Source: Synergistetes bacterium HGW-Synergistetes-1
GTDB lineage: Bacteria; Synergistota; Synergistia; Synergistales; Synergistaceae
Direction: 5' to 3'
Length of the DNA: 64,000 nt
NCBI GenBank assembly: GCA_002839185.1
Contig: PGXO01000002.1
Coordinates: forward strand, 124,001-188,000
Position 1 is the stretch's first letter. Each line of letters opens with the position of its first letter. Below are positions 792 to 33,520 of the stretch, in pieces. The translations under genes and the position numbers were made by a program. The notes under the pieces are model-generated. The model was not told the origin of the DNA. It made no database searches and was given only the letters and a program-made list of their open reading frames with translations.

Positions 792-1447
792 AGATGTGAA
801 AAGAGTAGGTCGTAGGATTTTTACGGATGATTGACCGACATTGATACATTAAGAATCATGAGGTAAATCTCATCTCTTTGTCTTGATCTGTCTCAGCTTT
901 TATCTACGCGAAAAATGACATATCTGAGCAATTGTACCAAATCTACATAAAATTGCTTGCATCATTTCGATTTATATGATAAAAAGCGACTAGTGATAGC
1001 GGTAATAAGGAGGGTAGGGTATTTAAGTCTATCATCACAAACCGAGTCAAGCATTTTTAAAATCTGACCTAACTGGATTACAGTTATACGAATGGCCATA
1101 CGGACAGCCGGGTCAAATGCCGAACTAGCGATTGTGATATCGTGTTGATGAGCCAGAGCTCAAATTTTGTTGCGGAGACCTCCGCGAAATTGTGTTCATA
1201 AGTTTAGAGTACTTGTGAATGGTCGACATGAGCAGTAAAAGTATATATTACTGTATAGGCTCAAATAAACTACCAATATTTGTATAATACATCAATCAAA
1301 TAAAGTAGGGATCATCTATCAAGTACAACTATCCTGTCTTTTCCCCTGAGGAAGGCGGGTGGTTGTTTTTTATTTTAAGGGGTGTAAAGCAAGCACCCCG
1401 AGTGGATGAACACTCATGCGGAGGCCATTTTCAGAAAGGAGCCTGAG
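792..1447. other. gene-free stretch with the speD leader
   Basis: About 650 bases without a credible gene. The first 470 bases are AT-rich and show no frame longer than a few dozen codons with a ribosome site; they may be a decayed gene or insertion-element scrap, but no family is recognisable in either strand. A TATAAT box lies at 1283-1288 without a clear -35 partner. The hairpin at 1325-1375 and the speD ribosome site (AAAGGA, 1436-1441) complete the stretch. Confidence 0.5.
1325..1375 (+). terminator. terminator-like hairpin in the speD leader
   Basis: ACAACTATCC (1325-1334) pairs fully, with G-U pairs allowed, with GGGTGGTTGT (1357-1366), and is followed by a T-rich run to 1375. It lies about 70 bases before the speD start and more than 500 bases after the previous gene, so it may act on speD expression (attenuation) rather than end an upstream transcript. 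Confidence 0.55.
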
Positions 1448-15358: not shown

Positions 15359-17719
15359 TTAGAAACCTTCCTGAGCGTTCCTTGCGATTATCTCTTCCTG
15401 CTGGTAAGTGTCGAGGTCTACGAAGTAATCGCTGTAGCCTGCGACTCTGACAAGGAGTCCGCGGTAGTTATCAGGATGTTCCTGAGCGTCACGGAGAGTA
15501 TCTTCGTCCACAACGTTGAACTGGATATGGTGCCCGCCGAGTTTGAAGTAGGAGCGGATAAGGTTCTTGACTCCCTCTATTCCTTCTTCTCCCGCAAGTA
15601 CTGATGGGAGGAAACGCTGGTTGAGCAGTGTTCCGCCTGATTTTACCTGATCCATTTTTGCCAGTGACTTAACGACTGCCGTAGGTCCGTTGATGTCAGC
15701 GCCATGGCTCGGTGACGTGCCGTCTGATTCAGGCATGCCTGAGAAACGTCCGTTTGGAGAAGCGGCAAGCTTCTGGCCGAAGTAGTTGTGGCATGTAGTA
15801 CTGAGCATGTTAAGGTGATATGTCGGCCCAAGAATGCTGTGTCTGCCGTCTATCGTCCTGAAGAGGCTGTCATAGACTCTCTTCATAATGTCATCAGCAT
15901 AGTCGTCGTCGTTGCCGAAGAAGGGGGTCTTGTTGCGAAGGGTAAGGCGCATCTCCTCTTCGCCTTCCCAGTTCTTTTCCATCGCAGCAACAAGCTGTTT
16001 TAGGGTATACTTCTTATCGTCGAAAACATGCTTCTTTATTGCGGAAAGGCTGTCTGTGACTGTACCTATGCCGGTGCACTGGATGTAGTCAGAGTTATAG
16101 CGTGGTCCTCCGTTGTAATAGTCTTTGCCTTTCTGTATGCAGTCCCGTATAACCACAGAAAGGAAAGTAGCTGCCATCTTAGTTGCGTACTGGTAGCGCA
16201 GGTAGTTGTCTACTTTGATCTTTGTCTCTACTGTGTAATTGAGCTGTTTATCAAATGCAGCATAGAGATCTTCAAAGGTTCTGAACTCACTGATGTCGCC
16301 TGTTTGGATGCTGACCTGCTTGCCTGTCAGCATGTCGACTCCGTTTGTAAGTACGTACTCAAGAAGCTTGGGAATATTGAGGTATCCATGGAGCAGATAT
16401 GCCTCTTTGCCAGCCGCTCCTGTCTCGATGCATCCGCTTGTGCCGCCTTCGCGTGCATCTTCAAGTGTCTTGCCTACACGCATCTGTTCCTGGATGACCA
16501 TGTCGGCGTTGAAGACCGAAGGATAACCCATGCCGTTGCGGAAGACCCTTGCTGCAGCACGGATAACGCTGTCAGGCGTGCGCTCGCTTACCTGGATGTT
16601 GCCCTGGGGTTGCAGGAGGCGAAGTTCGTCAAAGATCTCGAGGCAGATGTATGTCACTTCGCTCGATCCGTCAGTGCCGTCAGCCTTAAGTCCGGCCAGG
16701 TTGATGTTCGTGAAGTCGTTGTAGGTCCCGCTTTCGGCTGCAGTTACACCGACCTTGGGAGGTGCGGGGGTGTTGTTGACCTTGATCCAGAGGCAGGAGA
16801 GGAGTTCTTTCGCCGCTTCTCTGTCAAGTGTTCCGGTTTTTACACCCTTCTCATAGAACGGGGCGAGGTGCTGGTCAAGATGACCGGGGCTCATAGCGTC
16901 CCAGCCGTTGAGTTCCGTTATTGTGCCAAGGTGCACGAACCAATACATCTGGACCGCTTCCCAGAAGTCTCTCGGCGCGTTTGCGGGTACCCATCTGCAG
17001 ACATCGGCTATCTTGAGAAGTTCTGCCTTGCGTTTGGGATCGCTCTCACCGGCCGCCATCTTTTCGGCAAGCTCGGCATGTCTTTCAGCGAAGATGATGA
17101 CTGCATCGCAGGAGATATCCATACCCTGGAGCTGTTCGTCTTTTGCTGTGGCTTCGGGATCTTTCAGGTAGTCCAGCTTTGCACGTGCTTCGGCTATCTG
17201 TTTTTTTAGGTCTAGCATGCCGTTTTTGTAGATAAGTCCGTCAAGGGCAGTGTGTCCAAGGGCTCTCTGTTCGCCGAATTCAGTGAAAGTTCCGGCTTCG
17301 TAGAGCTTGGTCCAGTCCTCAGGCATGCGCTCAAAAAGCTTGTCTCGCATGCAGCGGCCGCGCCAGAAGGGAATTACTTTCTCTTCGTAGATATTGATAT
17401 CTTCAGGATCTACTGTATAGTTCTGCTGTTTTCTGATGTTGAGTATCTCAAGGTCTTCCCTGGAATGGCAGGTCAGTTCAGGGAATGTCGATACAGACTT
17501 TGGTTTCGAGCCTCTCTCCCCTACGATCAGCTCTTCTTTTCCGATGAAGATATTTTTATTCTGGCAGATATACCTGAAGTTCATGGCGCGCATAACGGGC
17601 ATAGGATACTTGTTGTCGTTCTCTTTGTAGAACTCAGTCTCAAGAACGGCTCTTTCAATGCAGATTGAGGGATGTGCTTCAAAGCTTTCGTCGCGGAGAC
17701 GTTTGATGCGCTCATTCAT
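15359..17719 (-). CDS. hypD: glycyl radical enzyme, probable trans-4-hydroxy-L-proline dehydratase
   Basis: 786 residues. The radical glycine is Gly761 in RVAGYSDYF and the thiyl cysteine is Cys430 in GTSGCIETG. Against Clostridioides difficile HypD as remembered, a constant offset of 4 places every active-site residue I recall at an identical residue: Phe148, His156, Asp274, Ser330, Asp335, Cys430, Glu432, Tyr446 and Thr641. HypD removes water from hydroxyproline to give pyrroline-5-carboxylate. No proC lies beside it, unlike in many clostridia. ATG 17719 follows GGGAGG at 8 bases. It is the last gene after a GntR regulator and an activase. Isethionate or diol lyases of the same superfamily are less likely given the residue set. 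Confidence 0.82.
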   Translation of the reverse strand: MNERIKRLRDESFEAHPSICIERAVLETEFYKENDNKYPMPVMRAMNFRYICQNKNIFIGKEELIVGERGSKPKSVSTFPELTCHSREDLEILNIRKQQNYTVDPEDINIYEEKVIPFWRGRCMRDKLFERMPEDWTKLYEAGTFTEFGEQRALGHTALDGLIYKNGMLDLKKQIAEARAKLDYLKDPEATAKDEQLQGMDISCDAVIIFAERHAELAEKMAAGESDPKRKAELLKIADVCRWVPANAPRDFWEAVQMYWFVHLGTITELNGWDAMSPGHLDQHLAPFYEKGVKTGTLDREAAKELLSCLWIKVNNTPAPPKVGVTAAESGTYNDFTNINLAGLKADGTDGSSEVTYICLEIFDELRLLQPQGNIQVSERTPDSVIRAAARVFRNGMGYPSVFNADMVIQEQMRVGKTLEDAREGGTSGCIETGAAGKEAYLLHGYLNIPKLLEYVLTNGVDMLTGKQVSIQTGDISEFRTFEDLYAAFDKQLNYTVETKIKVDNYLRYQYATKMAATFLSVVIRDCIQKGKDYYNGGPRYNSDYIQCTGIGTVTDSLSAIKKHVFDDKKYTLKQLVAAMEKNWEGEEEMRLTLRNKTPFFGNDDDYADDIMKRVYDSLFRTIDGRHSILGPTYHLNMLSTTCHNYFGQKLAASPNGRFSGMPESDGTSPSHGADINGPTAVVKSLAKMDQVKSGGTLLNQRFLPSVLAGEEGIEGVKNLIRSYFKLGGHHIQFNVVDEDTLRDAQEHPDNYRGLLVRVAGYSDYFVDLDTYQQEEIIARNAQEGF

Positions 17720-17860
17720 GTTTCTTACCTCCCTGGGTGTTGTCATCTGATATTTATGTTATGTTTTAAGTATTTCCCGACCTTTGCAGCTATGCGCTCA
17801 GGTCTGCCACTTTTATAATAATGCGCACTAAGCGCAATATCTTCCGGAATAGGGGTGTTC

Positions 17861-18766
17861 TTATCCGCCTATGTGTGTGTTCAAGCCAAAACTTTCCAGT
17901 ATTCCAGCGGCCCTCCGTGTCTGGTTTTCAGTAGGAGGCAGGAGGTCCGGAAGCTTGTAATCCATGTTCCACCGCTTATGCTTTCCCCTGGCCACTGTGT
18001 GGTAGGGAAGTATGTTCACTCCGGTTATCCCTTTGAGCTTTGAGATGAACTCACCGGTTGCCCTTACATTCTCGTCATCTGAGTTGAGGCCCGGCATAAA
18101 CGGGAACCTGATATTGATCTTTGATCCGAATTCAGAAAGGGCTACAAGATTTTCAAGAATTATCGAGTTGTCCACTCCGGTGTATTCCCTGTGTTTTTTC
18201 GGATCCATATGTTTCAGATCATACAGAAAAAGGTCTGTCTCCTTTGCAGCTTCGATGATCACCTTTTTGTCTACGAATCCGCAGGTATCTATCGCTCTGT
18301 GAAAACCTTCATGTCCGCAGGCTTTGAGTGCCTCTATGACGAATCCGGGCTGCATGAGGGGTTCTCCTCCCGAGAAAGTTACCCCGCCGCCGTCCCTGAA
18401 AAAGATCTCGTCTTTCCGGAGATGTTCCATAAGCTGCTCAACCGTGTATTTTCTGCCGCAAAGCTCCCGCGCACCGGAAGGGCATACATCTTCGCATATT
18501 CCGCATCCGTCACAGAGTCCTAGGTCTGTTGTCAAAGTACCTTCTGTTGCTGATATTGCTTTGTTGGGACATGATCTGACACATGCTCCGCACCCGATGC
18601 ACTTTTCACTGCGGAAGAGGATCATAGGGGTCATCGACTGGCTTTCCGGGTTGTGGCACCACCAGCAGGAGAGTGGGCATCCTTTCATATGTACCGTTGT
18701 GCGTGTTCCCGGGCCGTCGTGTATGGAGTATTTCTTTATGTCAAAAATGATCCCAGTTGTACTCAA
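17861..18766 (-). CDS. glycyl radical enzyme activase (radical SAM), HypE-like
   Basis: 301 residues. Cys30, Cys34 and Cys37 (CPLSCWWC) bind the radical SAM cluster that cleaves SAM to make the glycyl radical. An inserted ferredoxin-like domain carries two more CxxCxxCxxxC sets starting at Cys56 and Cys85, as in all activases except the short PFL type. It acts on the glycyl radical enzyme encoded 141 bases downstream. The start is a TTG 10 bases after GAGGAGG, which itself overlaps the end of the regulator gene, so the activase is co-translated with the regulator. A 15-base hairpin, TGCGCACTAAGCGCA at 17822-17836, lies between activase and enzyme and may separate their mRNA levels. Confidence 0.92.
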   Translation of the reverse strand: MSTTGIIFDIKKYSIHDGPGTRTTVHMKGCPLSCWWCHNPESQSMTPMILFRSEKCIGCGACVRSCPNKAISATEGTLTTDLGLCDGCGICEDVCPSGARELCGRKYTVEQLMEHLRKDEIFFRDGGGVTFSGGEPLMQPGFVIEALKACGHEGFHRAIDTCGFVDKKVIIEAAKETDLFLYDLKHMDPKKHREYTGVDNSIILENLVALSEFGSKINIRFPFMPGLNSDDENVRATGEFISKLKGITGVNILPYHTVARGKHKRWNMDYKLPDLLPPTENQTRRAAGILESFGLNTHIGG

Positions 18767-27117: not shown

Positions 27118-28977
27118 ATGAGTGATAAGGGCGGTCCGAGATACAACATCGGAATAGATGTAGGAGGGACTAATACAGACGGTGTCCTATATGACTGCAT
27201 CGAAAAAAAAATAGCAGCTTCAGTGAAAATACCCACAGTACACTCCTCGTATGCTAAAGCAATAGAGAGCTCTCTCAAAGCGCTTATAGGCGACTGCGGT
27301 AATAAAAGCAGCGAGGTGGCCTCTTTAAACATTTCAACTACGGTATCTACAAATGCGCTGCTCGAAGGCAAAGGGGAGCCTTCTAACCTTATTCTGATAG
27401 GTTTTGAGAGGTACCCGCACATAGTATCAGATGTTGAAATGACTATAAAGCCCTTATCATTATTGAAAGTAAGGGGCGGACACACCGGATGGGGAAAAGA
27501 AAGGGACTCTTTTGACCGTGAAGCTGTTGAAAGTTTTGTAAAAAAAAGGACAGGAGAACTTTTTACGGTATCATCCCTTTACTCCCCCAGAAACCCGGAG
27601 CACGAAACAGCTGCCCGAAGGGTACTGCTTTCAAATGGTTCAGGCCATGTGACCTGCAGCCATGAACTCTCATATTCAAAACTGAATTCAGTTAAAAGGA
27701 CAGTGACCGCATATCTCAATACGTCCCTTATACCTGTGGCGAACAGGCTGCTTGATGACATAAATACAGTCGTAAAAAAACATAAATTATCCTGTCCTGT
27801 AATGTTTTTAAGGAGCGACAGCACCTTGGTCCCCTCAGAGTGGTGCAGGAAATTTCCGATAGAAATGATCTACTCCGGCCCGGCTGCGAGTCTCAGGGGA
27901 GCGTCTTTCATTGCAGGAGAGGACAGACAGAGCAGTTTTATCGTTGCAGATATAGGGGGTACCTCTACGGACATAGGTAGGATCGAAAACGGCAGAGCGG
28001 TGTTCAGTGAAGAAGGAGCAAGGATAGGATCTTACAAGACAATGATCCCCTCGCTTGATATTATGAGCGTCGCGCTCGGAGGAGACAGCAAAATAAAATT
28101 TTCTGAAGCAGAAGAGATCACGGTGGGACCGGAAAGGGCTGTGCCTCTCTGCAGGGTTTCTGAGGAGACGGGTATTACTGCCTGTGATGTCATTGGTCGC
28201 CTGATGAAAAGTTTCGCTAATGAAAATGATACGACCGGATTTTTGATAAATGATGGCTGGGATGATCCATCAGGCGATATCGGAGATTTCCCGGGCAATG
28301 CAAAGCCATTGCCATTTATTGCTGAAGATCTCTATCGAGCCGGCCTGGAAAAATGGCTGACAAAAGAATTTTCATACACGCCCACAGATGCATTCAACAC
28401 AATGGGTTTATCTAATGTTGGAGATCTGGAGATATCTAAAACTGCTTCCTATGTGATCGCGAAAAAACACAGGATGGCAAGCTTCGATTTTGCCCGACAA
28501 ATATCTGTGAAAACAAATTCCGTGCTCGAATATTCGATAAAAGATTACGCATGCAGGTGTCAACCTCTGCCAAGGATATACGTTGGAACACCTGCAAAAG
28601 TATTTGTAAAACTAGGGGAAAAGGATGGAATTGATATCACTGTACCTGAAAATTTTGACGTTGCAGGAGCTGCAGGAGCCGCGGTGAGTTCTATGGAATT
28701 TAGCTGCAGTGTGTTCATAATGCACAGCTTTAGTGACGACAGCTTCACTGCGTTCCTTCCCGAAACTACAGTATCCTCTTGTAATTTTCAGGAGCTTTTG
28801 AATGAGGCAGAGGAGGCCGGAAAGAGATATCTCAGCAAACTTGCAGAGAAAATGGGGTATCCTGAAACCAGGATCATCATCGATAAGAACTTCAATTATG
28901 TCGGACCAACTGAAAATATAGTCTCTCTGCTCTCCCTGTCGATGGATTTCCGCGCTCTTGTGGACACTGCACAATAG
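27118..28977 (+). CDS. HyuA-like ASKHA protein (hydantoinase/oxoprolinase family)
   Basis: 619 residues. The hydantoinase-A N-terminal ATPase motifs are present: GIDVGGTNTDGVLYD near 12-26, ISTTVSTNALLEGKG near 72-86, GPAASLRGA and ADIGGTSTDIG in the middle. The usual partner HyuB is absent. It is instead followed by a cobalamin-binding protein and a TRAP-type binding protein. HyuA-like proteins use ATP to open lactam rings, but related ASKHA proteins reactivate B12 enzymes, so either role is open. AGGAGG lies before the ATG; the gap to the next gene is 212 bases, with a weak TCCCGG/CCGGGA hairpin at 28984-29003. Confidence 0.82.
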   Translation: MSDKGGPRYNIGIDVGGTNTDGVLYDCIEKKIAASVKIPTVHSSYAKAIESSLKALIGDCGNKSSEVASLNISTTVSTNALLEGKGEPSNLILIGFERYPHIVSDVEMTIKPLSLLKVRGGHTGWGKERDSFDREAVESFVKKRTGELFTVSSLYSPRNPEHETAARRVLLSNGSGHVTCSHELSYSKLNSVKRTVTAYLNTSLIPVANRLLDDINTVVKKHKLSCPVMFLRSDSTLVPSEWCRKFPIEMIYSGPAASLRGASFIAGEDRQSSFIVADIGGTSTDIGRIENGRAVFSEEGARIGSYKTMIPSLDIMSVALGGDSKIKFSEAEEITVGPERAVPLCRVSEETGITACDVIGRLMKSFANENDTTGFLINDGWDDPSGDIGDFPGNAKPLPFIAEDLYRAGLEKWLTKEFSYTPTDAFNTMGLSNVGDLEISKTASYVIAKKHRMASFDFARQISVKTNSVLEYSIKDYACRCQPLPRIYVGTPAKVFVKLGEKDGIDITVPENFDVAGAAGAAVSSMEFSCSVFIMHSFSDDSFTAFLPETTVSSCNFQELLNEAEEAGKRYLSKLAEKMGYPETRIIIDKNFNYVGPTENIVSLLSLSMDFRALVDTAQ

Positions 28978-29189
28978 TTTGACCTCCCGGTTGTTTCTCC
29001 GGGATAAATGTAATTTACTTTGTGCTGAATGCATAAAAAAATAGCTTGTTCAAGTTGATCTTTTATGTAGAGGATACAATGACTATATTTAATCATTGAG
29101 CTAATATCTCTTTAAGATATGAATATTACGGATTAATGAAGATACTAATAACCATATTAATTTAAGTTTGATGGATGGAGATAATCATA

Positions 29190-30962
29190 ATGATCGGACA
29201 GAGAAAAAAGATAAAAGAGCTATTATATTCGGCTAAACTTCCAAAGATGGAGACAGTGCTTTGCGAATCGAAAGAGATCGCTTCCTCTATCAAGATCGGC
29301 CGCTCTTCGTTCATGGAAAAATATGGAGTCTCTTCCGAGCTTGAATATAAACGCAGAAGCATTAAAGACGGACATATCATGTTTCATGCGCACATCGGCA
29401 TGAATACATGGCATGAGACAGCTTACAGCCTTAAAGCCGCCTATGATTTTGCTGAAACCAACGGTTTCATTATTGACAGGGCGGGAATTTGCCTTGACAG
29501 AAGAATGTCCCTTCCTAAAGATCTGAGAAAATCCGCTCCTCAGGAAAGCGGTCCATATCTTGAGACTCAGGAAGACTGGATGCAGGTGGGACAGGCTGCC
29601 CCTATCCAGGCACATATGGGAGATTTCATAATAGGTTTTCCTGCCTCGACAGAAAACACAGTCTCTGCTTTGCAGGCAGGTGTAACGACGATAGGAAACC
29701 TGTCCCAGTTTTTTGCCCATGAGGCTCCTATGTGGAGGCGCAAAGATCTGACTACGATCGAGACAGTCAAGGCCATTGGCATAATGGGTTTCCTTCGCGA
29801 CAAAGGGACACTTATGCATTCGTATCTGGACGATGGTTTTGGGGCGCTATTTCTTGATTGCAGCACAAGCGCCGCATGGGCCTACCTTGAAAAGTACATT
29901 GTCGAAGATCTCCTTGGTGCAAAACTTGCACATTGCGTTGGAGGCCTTGTTTCTGACCCGATCAAGCGTTCGGGGTGGATCTTTGCACTGGATGAAATAC
30001 ATGATCACGATTGTATCGGGTCGATGTTTTACGGAGATACGATATCGTCACACAGCGATCCTGAAAAAAACCGTGCTCTGACGGCAGAGTACCTTCTTTG
30101 GGACATTATGACACAGATCGAATGTCCGACAGGACACGCAGTTTTGCCCGTTCCTTTCACTGAAGCTCAGAGAGCGCCATCGCTCGAAGAGATCTGCGAG
30201 GTACAGCTGTGGGGAAGAGAAATCGAAAAAATTGCGGTAAAAATGCACCCGCACTTTGATTTCAGCGAACCCAAGAAGTTTGCTGCATCAATATGCAAGA
30301 AAGGCAGAAGGATATTTAACGACGCTCTTTCTTATCTTGAAGAATGCGGTGTCGATACGAAAAACGCGGTCGAAATGCTTTATGTGCTCAAGTCCCTTGG
30401 ACCGAGAGTCTTTGAAGATACGCTCAATCCATCTGCAAAAAATGGTAGTGCTCCTGCAGGAGAGTCATTGGCTATACCAAATGATATTTTTACGAAGACT
30501 CTCGAGCAGGTCGATATATGGACTCCATATTTTAGAAGCAGCGAAGTTAAGGAGAAGCTCACTGGACGCAGGGTGCTTCTTGCATCGACCGATGTGCACG
30601 AACATGGCCTTTTGCTGATCGATAAACTGCTGCAGCAGGCAGGGTGCTTGATCGTTAACATCGGCGCGGAAAGGAATCCGGACGAGGTTGTTCTTGCCGG
30701 AGTCCAGTCAGATGCGGAAATTATTTTTATCAGCACACACAACGGCATGGCACTAGAATATGCAAGGAACGTGCTGGATGAGATGGAGGAGCAGAACGTC
30801 TCCATTCCGATATGCATGGGAGGGGTTTTAAACCAGAATACGGAAGAGGGCACTCTCCCTATTGATGTTTCCTCAGATCTTGAGAGATTGGGAATAGGGA
30901 CGGTTAGTGATCTCACGCTCTTGCCAGAGTGTGCAGTTTCCCTTCTGAACTTCAGGCAATAA
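29190..30962 (+). CDS. cobalamin-dependent enzyme of unknown reaction (B12-binding C-terminal domain)
   Basis: 590 residues in two parts. The last 130 residues are a B12-binding domain: GRRVLLASTDVHEHG contains D468-x-H470-x-x-G473, the base-off/His-on signature seen in mutases and methionine synthase. Residues about 60-430 are a large region with many His (HAHIG, IQAHMGDF, HDHD and KMHPHFDF) that may form a barrel similar to glutamate mutase epsilon or aminomutase subunits; I could not match it safely. ATG 29190 was chosen because GGAG lies 9 bases before it. The gene sits between an ASKHA protein and a TRAP binding protein 48 bases downstream, so it probably works on the imported compound. 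Confidence 0.75.
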   Translation: MIGQRKKIKELLYSAKLPKMETVLCESKEIASSIKIGRSSFMEKYGVSSELEYKRRSIKDGHIMFHAHIGMNTWHETAYSLKAAYDFAETNGFIIDRAGICLDRRMSLPKDLRKSAPQESGPYLETQEDWMQVGQAAPIQAHMGDFIIGFPASTENTVSALQAGVTTIGNLSQFFAHEAPMWRRKDLTTIETVKAIGIMGFLRDKGTLMHSYLDDGFGALFLDCSTSAAWAYLEKYIVEDLLGAKLAHCVGGLVSDPIKRSGWIFALDEIHDHDCIGSMFYGDTISSHSDPEKNRALTAEYLLWDIMTQIECPTGHAVLPVPFTEAQRAPSLEEICEVQLWGREIEKIAVKMHPHFDFSEPKKFAASICKKGRRIFNDALSYLEECGVDTKNAVEMLYVLKSLGPRVFEDTLNPSAKNGSAPAGESLAIPNDIFTKTLEQVDIWTPYFRSSEVKEKLTGRRVLLASTDVHEHGLLLIDKLLQQAGCLIVNIGAERNPDEVVLAGVQSDAEIIFISTHNGMALEYARNVLDEMEEQNVSIPICMGGVLNQNTEEGTLPIDVSSDLERLGIGTVSDLTLLPECAVSLLNFRQ

Positions 30963-31010
30963 TATGGTTTTTGCAGCAAGATGAAATCAAAAAAATTGGG
31001 AGTGGTAGGG

Positions 31011-32048
31011 ATGACAATGACAAAACGTTTAATTATGTTTTCTTTAGTATCTGTTTTTTGTGCGGTCTCTTTAATTAGTATGGTACAGTCTGCGGCAGCA
31101 GCGCCGTTAGTCCTTAAATTTGCGGGACAGAACCCCCCGGAACATTTTGCGACAACTTCGATGAACGACATAGCAAAAGAAGTTGCTCAGAAGACCAACA
31201 ACAGGGTACAGATCAAGGTTTTCCCTGCCAACCAACTGGGTGATTACTCACTGGTTTATGAGGAACTTATAAGAGGAACGGTCGAAATGGCAATGATATC
31301 TTTCCCGAGCCAGTTCGACAACAGGATGGACCTGATATATGTTCAGGGATACACAAGCAGCTATGAGCAGGTCGCTAAAGTTTACGACCCCAACGGATGG
31401 TTCTTCAAAAAAATGGATGAATTCAATTCCAACCTGGGAGTTAAGCTCTTGGGGATGTATCTTGAAGGCATGGTGGGCATAGGGACTGTCAAGCCAATGA
31501 GGGATCCTTTGAATCCGAAGGTAGACAAAGGAGTGCTTCTTCGTATCCCAAACATGGATGTATTCAAGACAGCGCTCGAAGGTGCTAAATTCCGCACGAT
31601 CTCGATACCCTTCGCAGATGTTTATCAGGCAATGCAGACAGGCGTTTGCGACGGTGATACGGGATATTCGATCGTTGCAGCCTACACGACCTTCGGTGAT
31701 GTTATAAAACATTGGTACAACTTCAACAAAAACACTGAGTGCCTTGGCGTAATGGTCAGCGACAAAGTATGGAAGAAGCTCTCCCCTGAAGACCGTAAAG
31801 TCCTTCAGCAGGCTGTGAATAAACAGGCTGCACTGAGCATCACGAACGCAAAGGCTAACGACCAGAAGTACCTTGAACTCATGAAAAAGAAAGGGGTACA
31901 GGTACACATGTATACCCCTAAAGAACTGAAACCTATGATGGATGCCTTCGCGGCCACATGGAGCCAGCTTAACCAGAGCAAGGGCAAGGACCTTATGGAT
32001 GAATTTAAGAAAGAAATGAAGAAGATCTCGGACGAAATAGCTAAGTAA
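31011..32048 (+). CDS. TRAP-type solute-binding protein (DctP family), orphan
   Basis: 345 residues. A signal peptide (about 1-28, ending SAAAA) is followed by the DctP fold: LKFAGQNPPEHFATTSM, VFPANQLGDY, and the LRIPNMDVFKTALEGAKF region that carries the arginine binding the substrate carboxylate. It would capture an organic or amino acid outside the cell membrane. The membrane partners DctQ and DctM are not adjacent. ATG 31011 was chosen because GGGAG lies 8 bases upstream; an earlier ATG at 30981 has no site. It ends a probable operon with the HyuA-like and B12 genes. Confidence 0.9.
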   Translation: MTMTKRLIMFSLVSVFCAVSLISMVQSAAAAPLVLKFAGQNPPEHFATTSMNDIAKEVAQKTNNRVQIKVFPANQLGDYSLVYEELIRGTVEMAMISFPSQFDNRMDLIYVQGYTSSYEQVAKVYDPNGWFFKKMDEFNSNLGVKLLGMYLEGMVGIGTVKPMRDPLNPKVDKGVLLRIPNMDVFKTALEGAKFRTISIPFADVYQAMQTGVCDGDTGYSIVAAYTTFGDVIKHWYNFNKNTECLGVMVSDKVWKKLSPEDRKVLQQAVNKQAALSITNAKANDQKYLELMKKKGVQVHMYTPKELKPMMDAFAATWSQLNQSKGKDLMDEFKKEMKKISDEIAK

Positions 32049-32162: not shown

Positions 32163-33413
32163 TCATTGTTCCTGTTTTTTCCCTCCGGAGACGCCCAGTT
32201 TTTTCATAAGAAGGACAAGGTAAAATGAAATGACTTCTTCAAAGTTTTCGATAGATATGTTGAATTTTTCTTCTACTTTGGCAAGCCTGTAAGCAAGAGT
32301 GTTTCTATGGAGGTGGAGTTTTTCCGCAGCCCTCTGTTTGCTGAAGAAGCATTCGCAGTATGTGGAGAATGTTTCGAGAAGATCTGTCGTGTCGTTTTCT
32401 TCATGGTATTCTGCCATTTTTTTTTCAAGATATTTTAAGGAATAATGAGGATTTACTGATAGCAGAAGGTGCTCAAGCAGCATTTCATTAAAGGAATAGA
32501 CTCCCGGAGGCATAGCTAATTTTTCTGCTACTGAGACCACTTCCCACGCGTTGCTGTAAGCAAAGGGCATTTCATAAAGATTTTGTGCAGGATGTCCGAT
32601 CCCGATGATCGTCTCAATGGAAGCGTCCTTAAGTTTATCCCAAATTTCCTTCGAAAGTTCTTTCGCTCGGTCGAGTTCAGCCAAAAGCAGTTCTTCCTCA
32701 ATGCTTTCCAGCTTCCAGAATATTACGAATCTGTCCCTCGATACCGAAGCGATAATATTTTGAGGATCCGGAAAGATTTCCCTCAGTATCTCTATTACCC
32801 TGGAATGTGTAGCGCCATAATCTATTTCATCAGAAATGGGGTCGGAGTTGCTTTTGTATGATAGTCGGACAGGGTTCTTTTTAAAGCCAAGCCCCCTGAA
32901 ATTTGAGAAGAAAATTGCGATTGCTCCCCTGGGGACATCTAGCTGGATACCAAGCCTATCTGCCCTTTCCGGGAGTTTCGAAAGATCATCCCTTCTGGGA
33001 TCGAAGGAGCTTATGTCATTGACCAGCTCGTCGATCTTACTCTGTGATGATCGAAGCGATGGTGAGTATATCTTTTCCCGTAGCATGCTTTCGATCTGGT
33101 TTTTCAGCAGTGTGGAAAACTGAAGGACTATTTCAGGTTCACCGGCGATCGCCGCCGTTCCTATCACCTGGCCATTGAAGAAAATAGGAAATGTAGATCC
33201 CGGGTACCATACCCCAAGCTTTCGCGCTGCGTCTTCATCGTCGAAACTCATTTTTTTATATTTTATGCATGGCAAAGAGGGCGGATGAAATTCACCCAGT
33301 CTTTCCTTTGCCGGGGCACCGATAATTATTCCGTTGATATCAGTAATTATAATGCTCCTGCCCATCAATCCGCTGAGGTATTCAGAAATTTCCTGGGCGT
33401 ATTTTTCCAGCAT
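32163..33413 (-). CDS. CdaR/PucR-type transcription regulator
   Basis: 416 residues. The N-terminal part (residues 1-130, AQEISEYLSGLMGRSIIITD and GVWYPGSTFPIFFNGQVIGTA) is the sugar-diacid recognition domain, the middle is a GGDEF-like degenerate region, and the C-terminal 60 residues hold the PucR-type helix-turn-helix (AAEKLHLHRNTLAYRLAKVE). Such regulators sense hydroxy acids, glycerate or purine-derived compounds. ATG 33413 follows AGGAGG at 8 bases. It lies downstream of two nucleoside-type permease genes on the same strand and faces the end of the HyuA-B12-TRAP operon, so it could control either. Confidence 0.87.
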   Translation of the reverse strand: MLEKYAQEISEYLSGLMGRSIIITDINGIIIGAPAKERLGEFHPPSLPCIKYKKMSFDDEDAARKLGVWYPGSTFPIFFNGQVIGTAAIAGEPEIVLQFSTLLKNQIESMLREKIYSPSLRSSQSKIDELVNDISSFDPRRDDLSKLPERADRLGIQLDVPRGAIAIFFSNFRGLGFKKNPVRLSYKSNSDPISDEIDYGATHSRVIEILREIFPDPQNIIASVSRDRFVIFWKLESIEEELLLAELDRAKELSKEIWDKLKDASIETIIGIGHPAQNLYEMPFAYSNAWEVVSVAEKLAMPPGVYSFNEMLLEHLLLSVNPHYSLKYLEKKMAEYHEENDTTDLLETFSTYCECFFSKQRAAEKLHLHRNTLAYRLAKVEEKFNISIENFEEVISFYLVLLMKKLGVSGGKKQEQ

Positions 33414-33520
33414 GACCCACACCTCCTCTGGCCGTACTCGAATCCCGGATTATAAAATAAAAAGACTGAAAATCATTTTTCAGTGATAAGCCGCTAAATT
33501 CAGTTATAAAATTTGCAGGG

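What the first reader, a model, noticed from the sequence alone, without database searches (positions are those of the whole stretch)
27118..32048. Uncharacterised trio: HyuA-like ASKHA protein, B12 enzyme, TRAP binding protein
Three genes in one direction join an ATP-using HyuA-like protein, a protein with its own DxHxxG cobalamin domain and a secreted DctP-type receptor. I know no named pathway with this set. It looks like capture of a carboxylated compound, followed by a radical or methyl-transfer step on B12 with ATP-dependent activation or repair. The B12 protein has a large His-rich region that I could not match.
Basis: partly seen in the sequence, partly recalled or inferred. Interest (0 to 1): 0.72.

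Follow-up and report, generated by a model that had tools for sequence, protein, structure and literature searches.

The report
B12 mutase with a hydantoinase-like partner
Three neighbouring genes in an amino-acid-fermenting bacterium appear to encode an uncharacterised vitamin B12 radical mutase, a binding protein that probably captures its substrate, and an ATP-binding 'hydantoinase' lookalike that goes with B12 proteins and probably keeps the mutase working; this could explain why such lookalikes turn up in B12 operons.

Summary
The trio is real: HyuA-like ASKHA gene, B12 gene and TRAP binding-protein gene, same strand, in a Synergistaceae genome. The B12 gene and the HyuA-like gene are the core: adjacent in 18 of 18 genomes, 10 genera, 2 families. 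The DctP gene follows only in one Synergistaceae clade. The B12 protein's unmatched region is a predicted TIM barrel closest to glutamate mutase E (Z 28, 12% identity). With the fused DxHxxG domain this makes a single-chain adenosylcobalamin mutase, unmatched by Pfam outside the B12 domain and lacking the PLP lysine of aminomutases. The HyuA-like protein is not a hydantoinase subunit: no HyuB is beside it (17 of 18 genomes have none), the adenosine motif GxxPGP is gone, and it carries LGGDS/GPxR. The nearest relatives sit in corrinoid-methyltransferase operons; HyuB-linked HyuAs are a separate clade. A paralogous mutase has the reactivase-type MutL in the same slot. Most likely the HyuA-like protein is an ATP-driven B12-enzyme maintenance partner, not a substrate enzyme. 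The substrate is unknown; ProC-like, proline-racemase and OCD neighbours suggest an amino or imino acid. Reaction, substrate and reactivase role are untested. New variant of a known kind.

The parts
27118..28977 (+). HyuA-like ASKHA protein, 619 aa, LGGDS/GPxR subfamily; proposed ATP-driven partner of the B12 mutase
   Evidence: PF05378/PF01968; motifs; tree; adjacent to the B12 gene in 18/18 genomes; model resembles acetone carboxylase beta Z 19.5 (mean pLDDT only 67.8)
27157..27180 (+). phosphate-1 motif DVGGTNTD of the ASKHA fold (residues 14-21)
   Evidence: motif definition from PMC8453981
27949..27972 (+). phosphate-2 motif DIGGTSTD (residues 278-285)
28075..28089 (+). LGGDS signature (residues 320-324), where the HyuB-linked protein has GAGGGS; GPER follows where canonical proteins have GPxSxGxxPGP
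29190..30539 (+). B12 protein, N-terminal predicted TIM barrel (residues 1-450), glutamate-mutase-E-like fold, no Pfam family
   Evidence: AF2 model mean pLDDT 84.6; 6h9e_B Z 28.2, 368 aligned, rmsd 3.5
30564..30962 (+). B12 protein, C-terminal Rossmann cobalamin domain
   Evidence: PF02310; 2yxb Z 15.7 and glutamate mutase S chain 1i9c Z 15.6
30591..30608 (+). DxHxxG motif D468-x-H470-x-x-G473, expected lower axial His ligand
   Evidence: D and H invariant, G nearly, in 15 homologs; D and H invariant across Synergistota and rhizobial homologs, last motif residue G or A
30981..32048 (+). TRAP solute-binding protein DctP, 18 bp downstream of the B12 gene; substrate capture (inferred)
   Evidence: PF03480, NF037995 above cut-off; third in order in the Synergistaceae clade only
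32163..33422 (-). convergent CdaR/PucR-type regulator, probable local regulator
   Evidence: PF05651, PF13556; conserved beside the trio in g1, g8, g15, g20 and beside the pair in G025

Best explanation
The locus encodes a single-chain adenosylcobalamin (AdoCbl) radical mutase with its own ATP-dependent maintenance protein. SHOWN: the B12 protein has a cobalamin domain with the axial-His motif and a predicted glutamate-mutase-E-like barrel; it is always next to a HyuA-like ASKHA gene that has no HyuB, lacks the adenosine motif and belongs to a subgroup otherwise found in corrinoid-methyltransferase operons. INFERRED: (1) the substrate, probably an amino or imino acid, is bound outside the cell by DctP or taken up by another importer; (2) AdoCbl homolyses above the barrel and the 5'-deoxyadenosyl radical drives a 1,2-rearrangement; (3) when the cofactor is inactivated, the HyuA-like ATPase binds the mutase and exchanges or releases the damaged cobamide, as MutL/GlmL and diol-dehydratase reactivases are thought to do; (4) the product goes on to a ProC-like dehydrogenase where one is linked. 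Rough likelihoods: radical mutase 0.85; HyuA-like protein as B12 partner/reactivase 0.6; amino/imino-acid substrate 0.4.
For: Fold: glutamate mutase E Z 28, lysine 5,6-aminomutase Z 25.9, well above unrelated barrels at Z 14-16.5. AdoCbl supply: an ATP:cobalamin adenosyltransferase (PF01923, 1.4e-39) is in the genome. Core pair: 18/18 genomes. HyuA role: HyuB absent from 17 of 18 mutase genomes; of 47 HyuA loci in 188 Synergistota genomes, 16 adjoin the mutase, 9 adjoin corrinoid methyltransferase/RACE genes, 8 have HyuB, and none has both a B12 partner and HyuB; LGGDS and no GxxPGP in 24/24 B12-linked proteins, GxxPGP in 7/7 HyuB-linked ones examined; the two groups split at 100/100 support. 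A paralogous mutase has MutL directly downstream (PF13941 1e-136 in the one scanned), and five genomes carry both pairs. No MutL in this genome. 'HydA, hydantoinase' is drawn in glycine-betaine methyltransferase loci (PMC9768040); [quoted passage not shown] Substrate hint: ProC-like genes linked in G021, G027, G166, G187 and in rhizobial plasmid homologs; proline racemase or OCD family genes in G166 and G025.
Against: No activity is shown for any member. Rhizobial mutase homologs (35%) have no ASKHA gene nearby. Methyltransferase operons already have RACE, so HyuA would be a second ATPase there. In Proteobacteria, 8 of 8 stand-alone LGGDS proteins examined lack HyuB, but only 2 lie near a B12-related gene. 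Ten HyuA loci in one other Synergistota genus have neither a B12 gene nor HyuB nearby in those examined. The barrel has no sequence-profile match to glutamate mutase E. The HyuA-like model is of modest quality.
Confidence: 0.5

Rival explanations
1. The HyuA-like protein is a substrate enzyme: it phosphorylates an enol, lactim or carboxylate of the imported compound, as HyuA-type subunits do, and the mutase acts before or after that step.
For: Phosphate motifs are intact; HyuA-type subunits of caprolactamase and acetone carboxylase are held to phosphorylate substrate (PMC8453981); the fold match is to those enzymes.
Against: No HyuB or other lactam-opening partner; GxxPGP lost; the same subgroup accompanies methyltransferases of a different reaction type; MutL takes the same position in the paralogous mutase operons.
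Confidence: 0.2
2. The B12 protein is a PLP- and B12-dependent aminomutase like lysine 5,6- or ornithine 4,5-aminomutase.
For: Second-best fold match, Z 25.9; amino-acid neighbours; ornithine operons also have a GlmL-type protein (NF040744).
Against: The PLP lysine (Lys144/Lys629: PMC3958899; its spacing of 11 residues after the axial His is from memory) is Leu481 here, and no lysine is invariant in the cobalamin domain.
Confidence: 0.07
3. The B12 protein is a corrinoid methyltransferase, the barrel demethylating a substrate onto cobamide.
For: HyuA relatives accompany MttB-type methyltransferases; methionine synthase also pairs a barrel with a B12 domain (Z 14.5).
Against: No helical-bundle cap PF02607 (the methyltransferase corrinoid proteins have it); no RACE gene seen beside the trio; barrel closest to mutases by a wide margin.
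Confidence: 0.08
4. Neighbours by inheritance only: HyuA and mutase are unrelated functions kept together by descent.
For: All examples of the mutase-HyuA pair found here are in one phylum.
Against: Gene order flips (HyuA upstream in one clade, downstream in G025, G166, G183, G187) and surrounding genes differ, yet adjacency is kept in 18/18.
Confidence: 0.05

Closest known systems
Glutamate mutase (GlmE + GlmS) with GlmL/MutL
   Same: Barrel fold (Z 28), DxHxxG cobalamin domain, ASKHA protein next door, genes in amino-acid-fermenting anaerobes
   Different: Single chain, no PF06368 match, 12% structural identity, partner is HyuA-like rather than MutL, arginine substrate contacts could not be mapped
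2-methyleneglutarate mutase of Eubacterium barkeri (from memory)
   Same: Single-chain B12 mutase of about 600 aa with C-terminal cobalamin domain
   Different: Sequence not available here, so kinship is untested; no nicotinate-pathway genes were recognised in the loci examined
Lysine 5,6- and ornithine 4,5-aminomutases
   Same: Barrel plus B12 domain; amino-acid fermentation; a GlmL-type protein in ornithine operons
   Different: No PLP lysine; single chain of 590 aa
HyuA subunit of hydantoinases, 5-oxoprolinase, caprolactamase, acetone carboxylase
   Same: N-terminal domain and both phosphate motifs
   Different: No HyuB, GxxPGP lost, LGGDS/GPxR signature, diverged C-terminal half
'HydA' genes of glycine-betaine methyltransferase loci (PMC9768040)
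   Same: HyuA-type gene beside corrinoid protein, methyltransferase and RACE genes
   Different: No function proposed in the passage read; those go with methyl transfer, this one with a radical mutase; the motif was not checked there
RACE/RamA and EutA/diol-dehydratase reactivases
   Same: ASKHA ATPases that maintain B12 enzymes
   Different: Different families: no RACo or EutA domain in the HyuA-like protein

Membership tests
Glutamate mutase | GlmE-type TIM barrel fold | tested here: met
   Z 28.2 over 368 residues, rmsd 3.5; predicted model
Glutamate mutase | Sequence family PF06368 (Met_asp_mut_E) | tested here: not met
   No PF06368 match in 15 homologs; profile-profile alignment finds nothing convincing in the barrel; no PF06368 in this genome
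Glutamate mutase | Arginine trio R66/R100/R149 for the dicarboxylate | tested here: inconclusive
   No reliable residue alignment; a hand alignment suggests His at R66 and R149
AdoCbl mutases with axial His | DxHxxG motif in a Rossmann cobalamin domain | tested here: met
   D468, H470, G473
PLP-dependent aminomutases (LAM/OAM) | Schiff-base lysine 11 residues after the axial His | tested here: not met
   Leu481 at that place; no invariant lysine in the domain; lysines from PMC3958899, spacing from memory
2-methyleneglutarate mutase | Sequence homology to the E. barkeri enzyme | not testable with these tools
   No sequence held; paper not held
Hydantoinase/oxoprolinase HyuA | Hydant_A_N and Hydantoinase_A domains | tested here: met
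   Both above cut-off, the second only over 147 of 291 positions
Hydantoinase/oxoprolinase HyuA | Partner subunit HyuB | tested here: not met
   No PF02538 in the genome
Hydantoinase/oxoprolinase HyuA | Adenosine motif GxxPGP | tested here: not met
   Absent; LGGDS and GPER instead
MutL/GlmL | PF13941 above cut-off | tested here: not met
   16.6 bits against a cut-off of 27
RACE/RamA reductive activator | RACo ASKHA domain PF14574 | tested here: not met
   Not reported for this protein at E up to 1
B12-enzyme reactivase (functional class) | ATP-dependent exchange or release of damaged cobamide | not testable with these tools
   Needs biochemistry
TRAP solute-binding protein DctP | PF03480 / TRAP_S1 | tested here: met
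   147 bits; NF037995 131.8 bits against a cut-off of 50

The most novel reading that the evidence does not exclude
The LGGDS-type HyuA-like proteins are an unrecognised class of ATP-driven B12-protein maintenance factors, shared by radical mutases and corrinoid methyltransferases; and the mutase here catalyses a rearrangement not yet described, on an amino or imino acid.
Probability: 0.35. Interest if true: 0.78.

Novelty: new variant of a known kind. Interest (0 to 1): 0.6.

Why it matters
Genes called 'hydantoinase/oxoprolinase family protein' occur in B12 operons without explanation. A motif (LGGDS/GPxR in place of GAGGGS/GxxPGP) that separates stand-alone, often B12-linked members from true HyuB partners would let many annotations be corrected and gives a direct test of a possible new reactivase class. 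The mutase family, present in Synergistota and on rhizobial plasmids and named only 'cobalamin-dependent protein' or 'hypothetical protein' in most plasmid records seen here, is a candidate for a new radical rearrangement in amino-acid metabolism.

Tried and rejected
Profile-profile alignment of the barrel with glutamate mutase E: only the cobalamin domain aligned, so active-site residues could not be mapped. FIST-domain match to the barrel: weak (E 0.06, best 5e-4 in a homolog) and rejected. The first HyuA tree held a wrong ORF (L108, 1308 aa) and was rebuilt; the rebuilt tree leaves out the 'neither' genus, one further unpaired HyuA and some near copies; in the first tree those unpaired proteins fell on the HyuB side. 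One long-branch row (L113, beside an Eut operon that already has EutA) is of uncertain place. Cobalamin riboswitch near the trio: none in Rfam. The 708-aa B12 hits in relatives look like methylmalonyl-CoA mutase by their sequence, not members of this family. Literature searches for a hydantoinase-B12 mutase link found none.

Full report
WHAT IS THERE. The window lies at 124001-188000 of contig 2 of a 2.17 Mb genome, 99.93% complete, whose close relatives are titled Synergistaceae bacterium. Three genes on the + strand encode a HyuA-like ASKHA protein (27118-28977), a B12 protein (29190-30962; the ORF opens at 29175, but a GGAG box precedes the ATG at 29190) and a TRAP solute-binding protein DctP (30981-32048). 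A convergent CdaR/PucR-type regulator follows (32163-33422, minus strand). No cobalamin riboswitch was found in the window. An ATP:cobalamin adenosyltransferase is encoded elsewhere in the genome.

CONSERVATION. Relatives at 55% identity or more occur in 18 Synergistota genomes of 10 genera and 2 families, and the HyuA-like gene is the next gene in every one. It is upstream in one large Synergistaceae clade; in G025, G166, G183 and G187 it is downstream, close to or overlapping the mutase gene. DctP follows only in the clade that includes the window. Elsewhere transport is different: TRAP DctPQM upstream in G021 and apparently in G027, LIV-type ABC in G166. HyuA diverges faster (52% mean identity in the clade) than the B12 protein (74%) or DctP (77%), and HyuA and B12 distances correlate at r 0.93.

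THE B12 PROTEIN. Only the last 130 residues or so match Pfam. An AlphaFold2 model from 15 homologs (mean pLDDT 84.6, pTM 0.87) matches glutamate mutase E best (6h9e_B Z 28.2, rmsd 3.5, 368 aligned, 12% identity), then lysine 5,6-aminomutase alpha (25.9), ornithine aminomutase and methylmalonyl-CoA mutase; unrelated barrels score 14-16.5. The C-terminal domain matches mutase cobalamin domains. So the protein looks like glutamate mutase E and S fused into one chain, but it is not in the glutamate mutase sequence family: no PF06368 match, and profiles of the barrels do not align. Conserved His and Asp at or near strand ends (H66, H68, H142, H210, D214, D215, H316) and Arg97, 113, 260 and 328 persist across three clades at about 35% identity. 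The PLP lysine of the aminomutases is Leu here, so a PLP enzyme is unlikely. A radical mutase on AdoCbl is the best reading; no reaction is shown.

A SECOND CLADE AND RHIZOBIA. A paralog at 36% identity in G014, G021, G026, G035 and G178 has MutL directly downstream (PF13941 E 1e-136 in the G026 copy; NCBIfam places it in the GlmL family; the others by similarity). These five genomes hold both pairs, so each mutase has its own ASKHA partner. Nine plasmid records of Rhizobiaceae and Phyllobacteriaceae hold homologs (eight nearly full length, 33-36%); the four read in detail have no ASKHA gene nearby but have ProC-like and amino-acid transport genes.

THE HYUA-LIKE PROTEIN. A hydantoinase or oxoprolinase normally needs HyuB. 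Of 18 mutase-bearing genomes, 17 have no Hydantoinase_B at all, including this one; the other (G032) has one beside a different HyuA. Across 188 Synergistota genomes there are 47 HyuA N-terminal domains. Their neighbours sort as: mutase 16; corrinoid methyltransferase, corrinoid protein or RACE genes 9; HyuB 8; one more HyuA next to such a HyuA/HyuB pair; neither, in one genus, 10 (nine fetched); beside Eut or Pdu-type B12 operons 2; undetermined on a short contig 1. B12 and HyuB neighbours never coincide. The methyltransferase genes were confirmed in examples (MTTB, corrinoid protein, RACo ASKHA). All 24 B12-linked proteins examined carry LGGDS (and nearly all GPxR) and lack the GxxPGP adenosine motif; all 7 HyuB-linked ones examined carry GxxPGP (motif from PMC8453981). 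A tree separates B12-linked from HyuB-linked proteins at 100/100 (an earlier tree with a wrong ORF was discarded). In Proteobacteria, 8 stand-alone LGGDS proteins have no HyuB beside them, but only 2 lie near an MttB-type gene, so adjacency to B12 genes is not universal. The association has been drawn before for glycine-betaine methyltransferase loci, labelled 'HydA, hydantoinase' (PMC9768040).

HOW IT PROBABLY WORKS. The common factor among these partners is the cobamide, not the substrate. [quoted passage not shown] I therefore infer that the HyuA-like protein is an ATP-driven ASKHA factor that restores or loads the cofactor of the mutase. This is inference: no ATPase, binding or reactivation data were found. 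The main rival is that it phosphorylates the substrate, as HyuA subunits do.

SUBSTRATE. ProC-like genes lie beside or within a few kilobases of the mutase in G021, G027, G166, G187 and near the homologs on four rhizobial plasmids; G166 also has a proline racemase family gene, G025 an OCD family gene and a proline-racemase-like gene. This genome has a ProC-like gene elsewhere (55% identity to the G021 one), and the window also holds a HypD hydroxyproline dehydratase and activase about 10 kb upstream. In the G187 family the locus adjoins a crotonyl-CoA-type pathway. An amino or imino acid is likely; which one is not known.

VERDICT. Real and conserved; a new variant of a known kind (single-chain AdoCbl mutase plus ASKHA partner, with a HyuA-type protein as the partner). 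The strongest open claim is that LGGDS HyuA-like proteins are B12 maintenance factors.

Noticed in passing
window 15359-18766 (minus): trans-4-hydroxy-L-proline dehydratase HypD (1154.8 bits, above the 1100 cut-off) with a radical-SAM activase, and a GntR-like regulator just beyond, about 10 kb from the trio: hydroxyproline metabolism in the same region.
   Followed up: partly
L074 1018-2979 (G177): A glutamate-mutase-like protein with E and S parts fused in one 653-aa chain (TIGR01503 below cut-off, TIGR01501 above it), next to a TRAP DctM-like gene.
   Followed up: no
L032, L035, L036, L037, L070: Second mutase clade with MutL downstream, in several genomes near clpC-type and mechanosensitive-channel-like genes, an odd place for a catabolic pair.
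   Followed up: partly
L068, L086, L089 (G187, G183): Mutase, HyuA and ProC-like genes adjoin an HpaB-family (4-hydroxybutyryl-CoA-dehydratase-like), enoyl-CoA hydratase, 3-hydroxybutyryl-CoA dehydrogenase, thiolase and 2-oxoacid oxidoreductase set: a possible route for the product.
   Followed up: partly
L112, L113 (G061, G062): A HyuA-like gene (LGGDS in G062) stands beside ethanolamine or diol B12-enzyme operons, one with its own EutA reactivase.
   Followed up: partly
L127, L131 (Mesorhizobium plasmids): Stand-alone LGGDS HyuA next to truncated hemoglobin, ferredoxin and folE genes, without B12 genes.
   Followed up: no
window 1065-1123 (plus): Rfam SpF59 sRNA match, 53.7 bits against a cut-off of 37.2, far from the Streptococcus group it is named for.
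   Followed up: no
L092 2564-4044, L093 8726-9439, L095 11359-12072, L096 2056-2781: A 237-249 aa protein without a Pfam match recurs beside HyuA and RACE genes of the methyltransferase operons.
   Followed up: no
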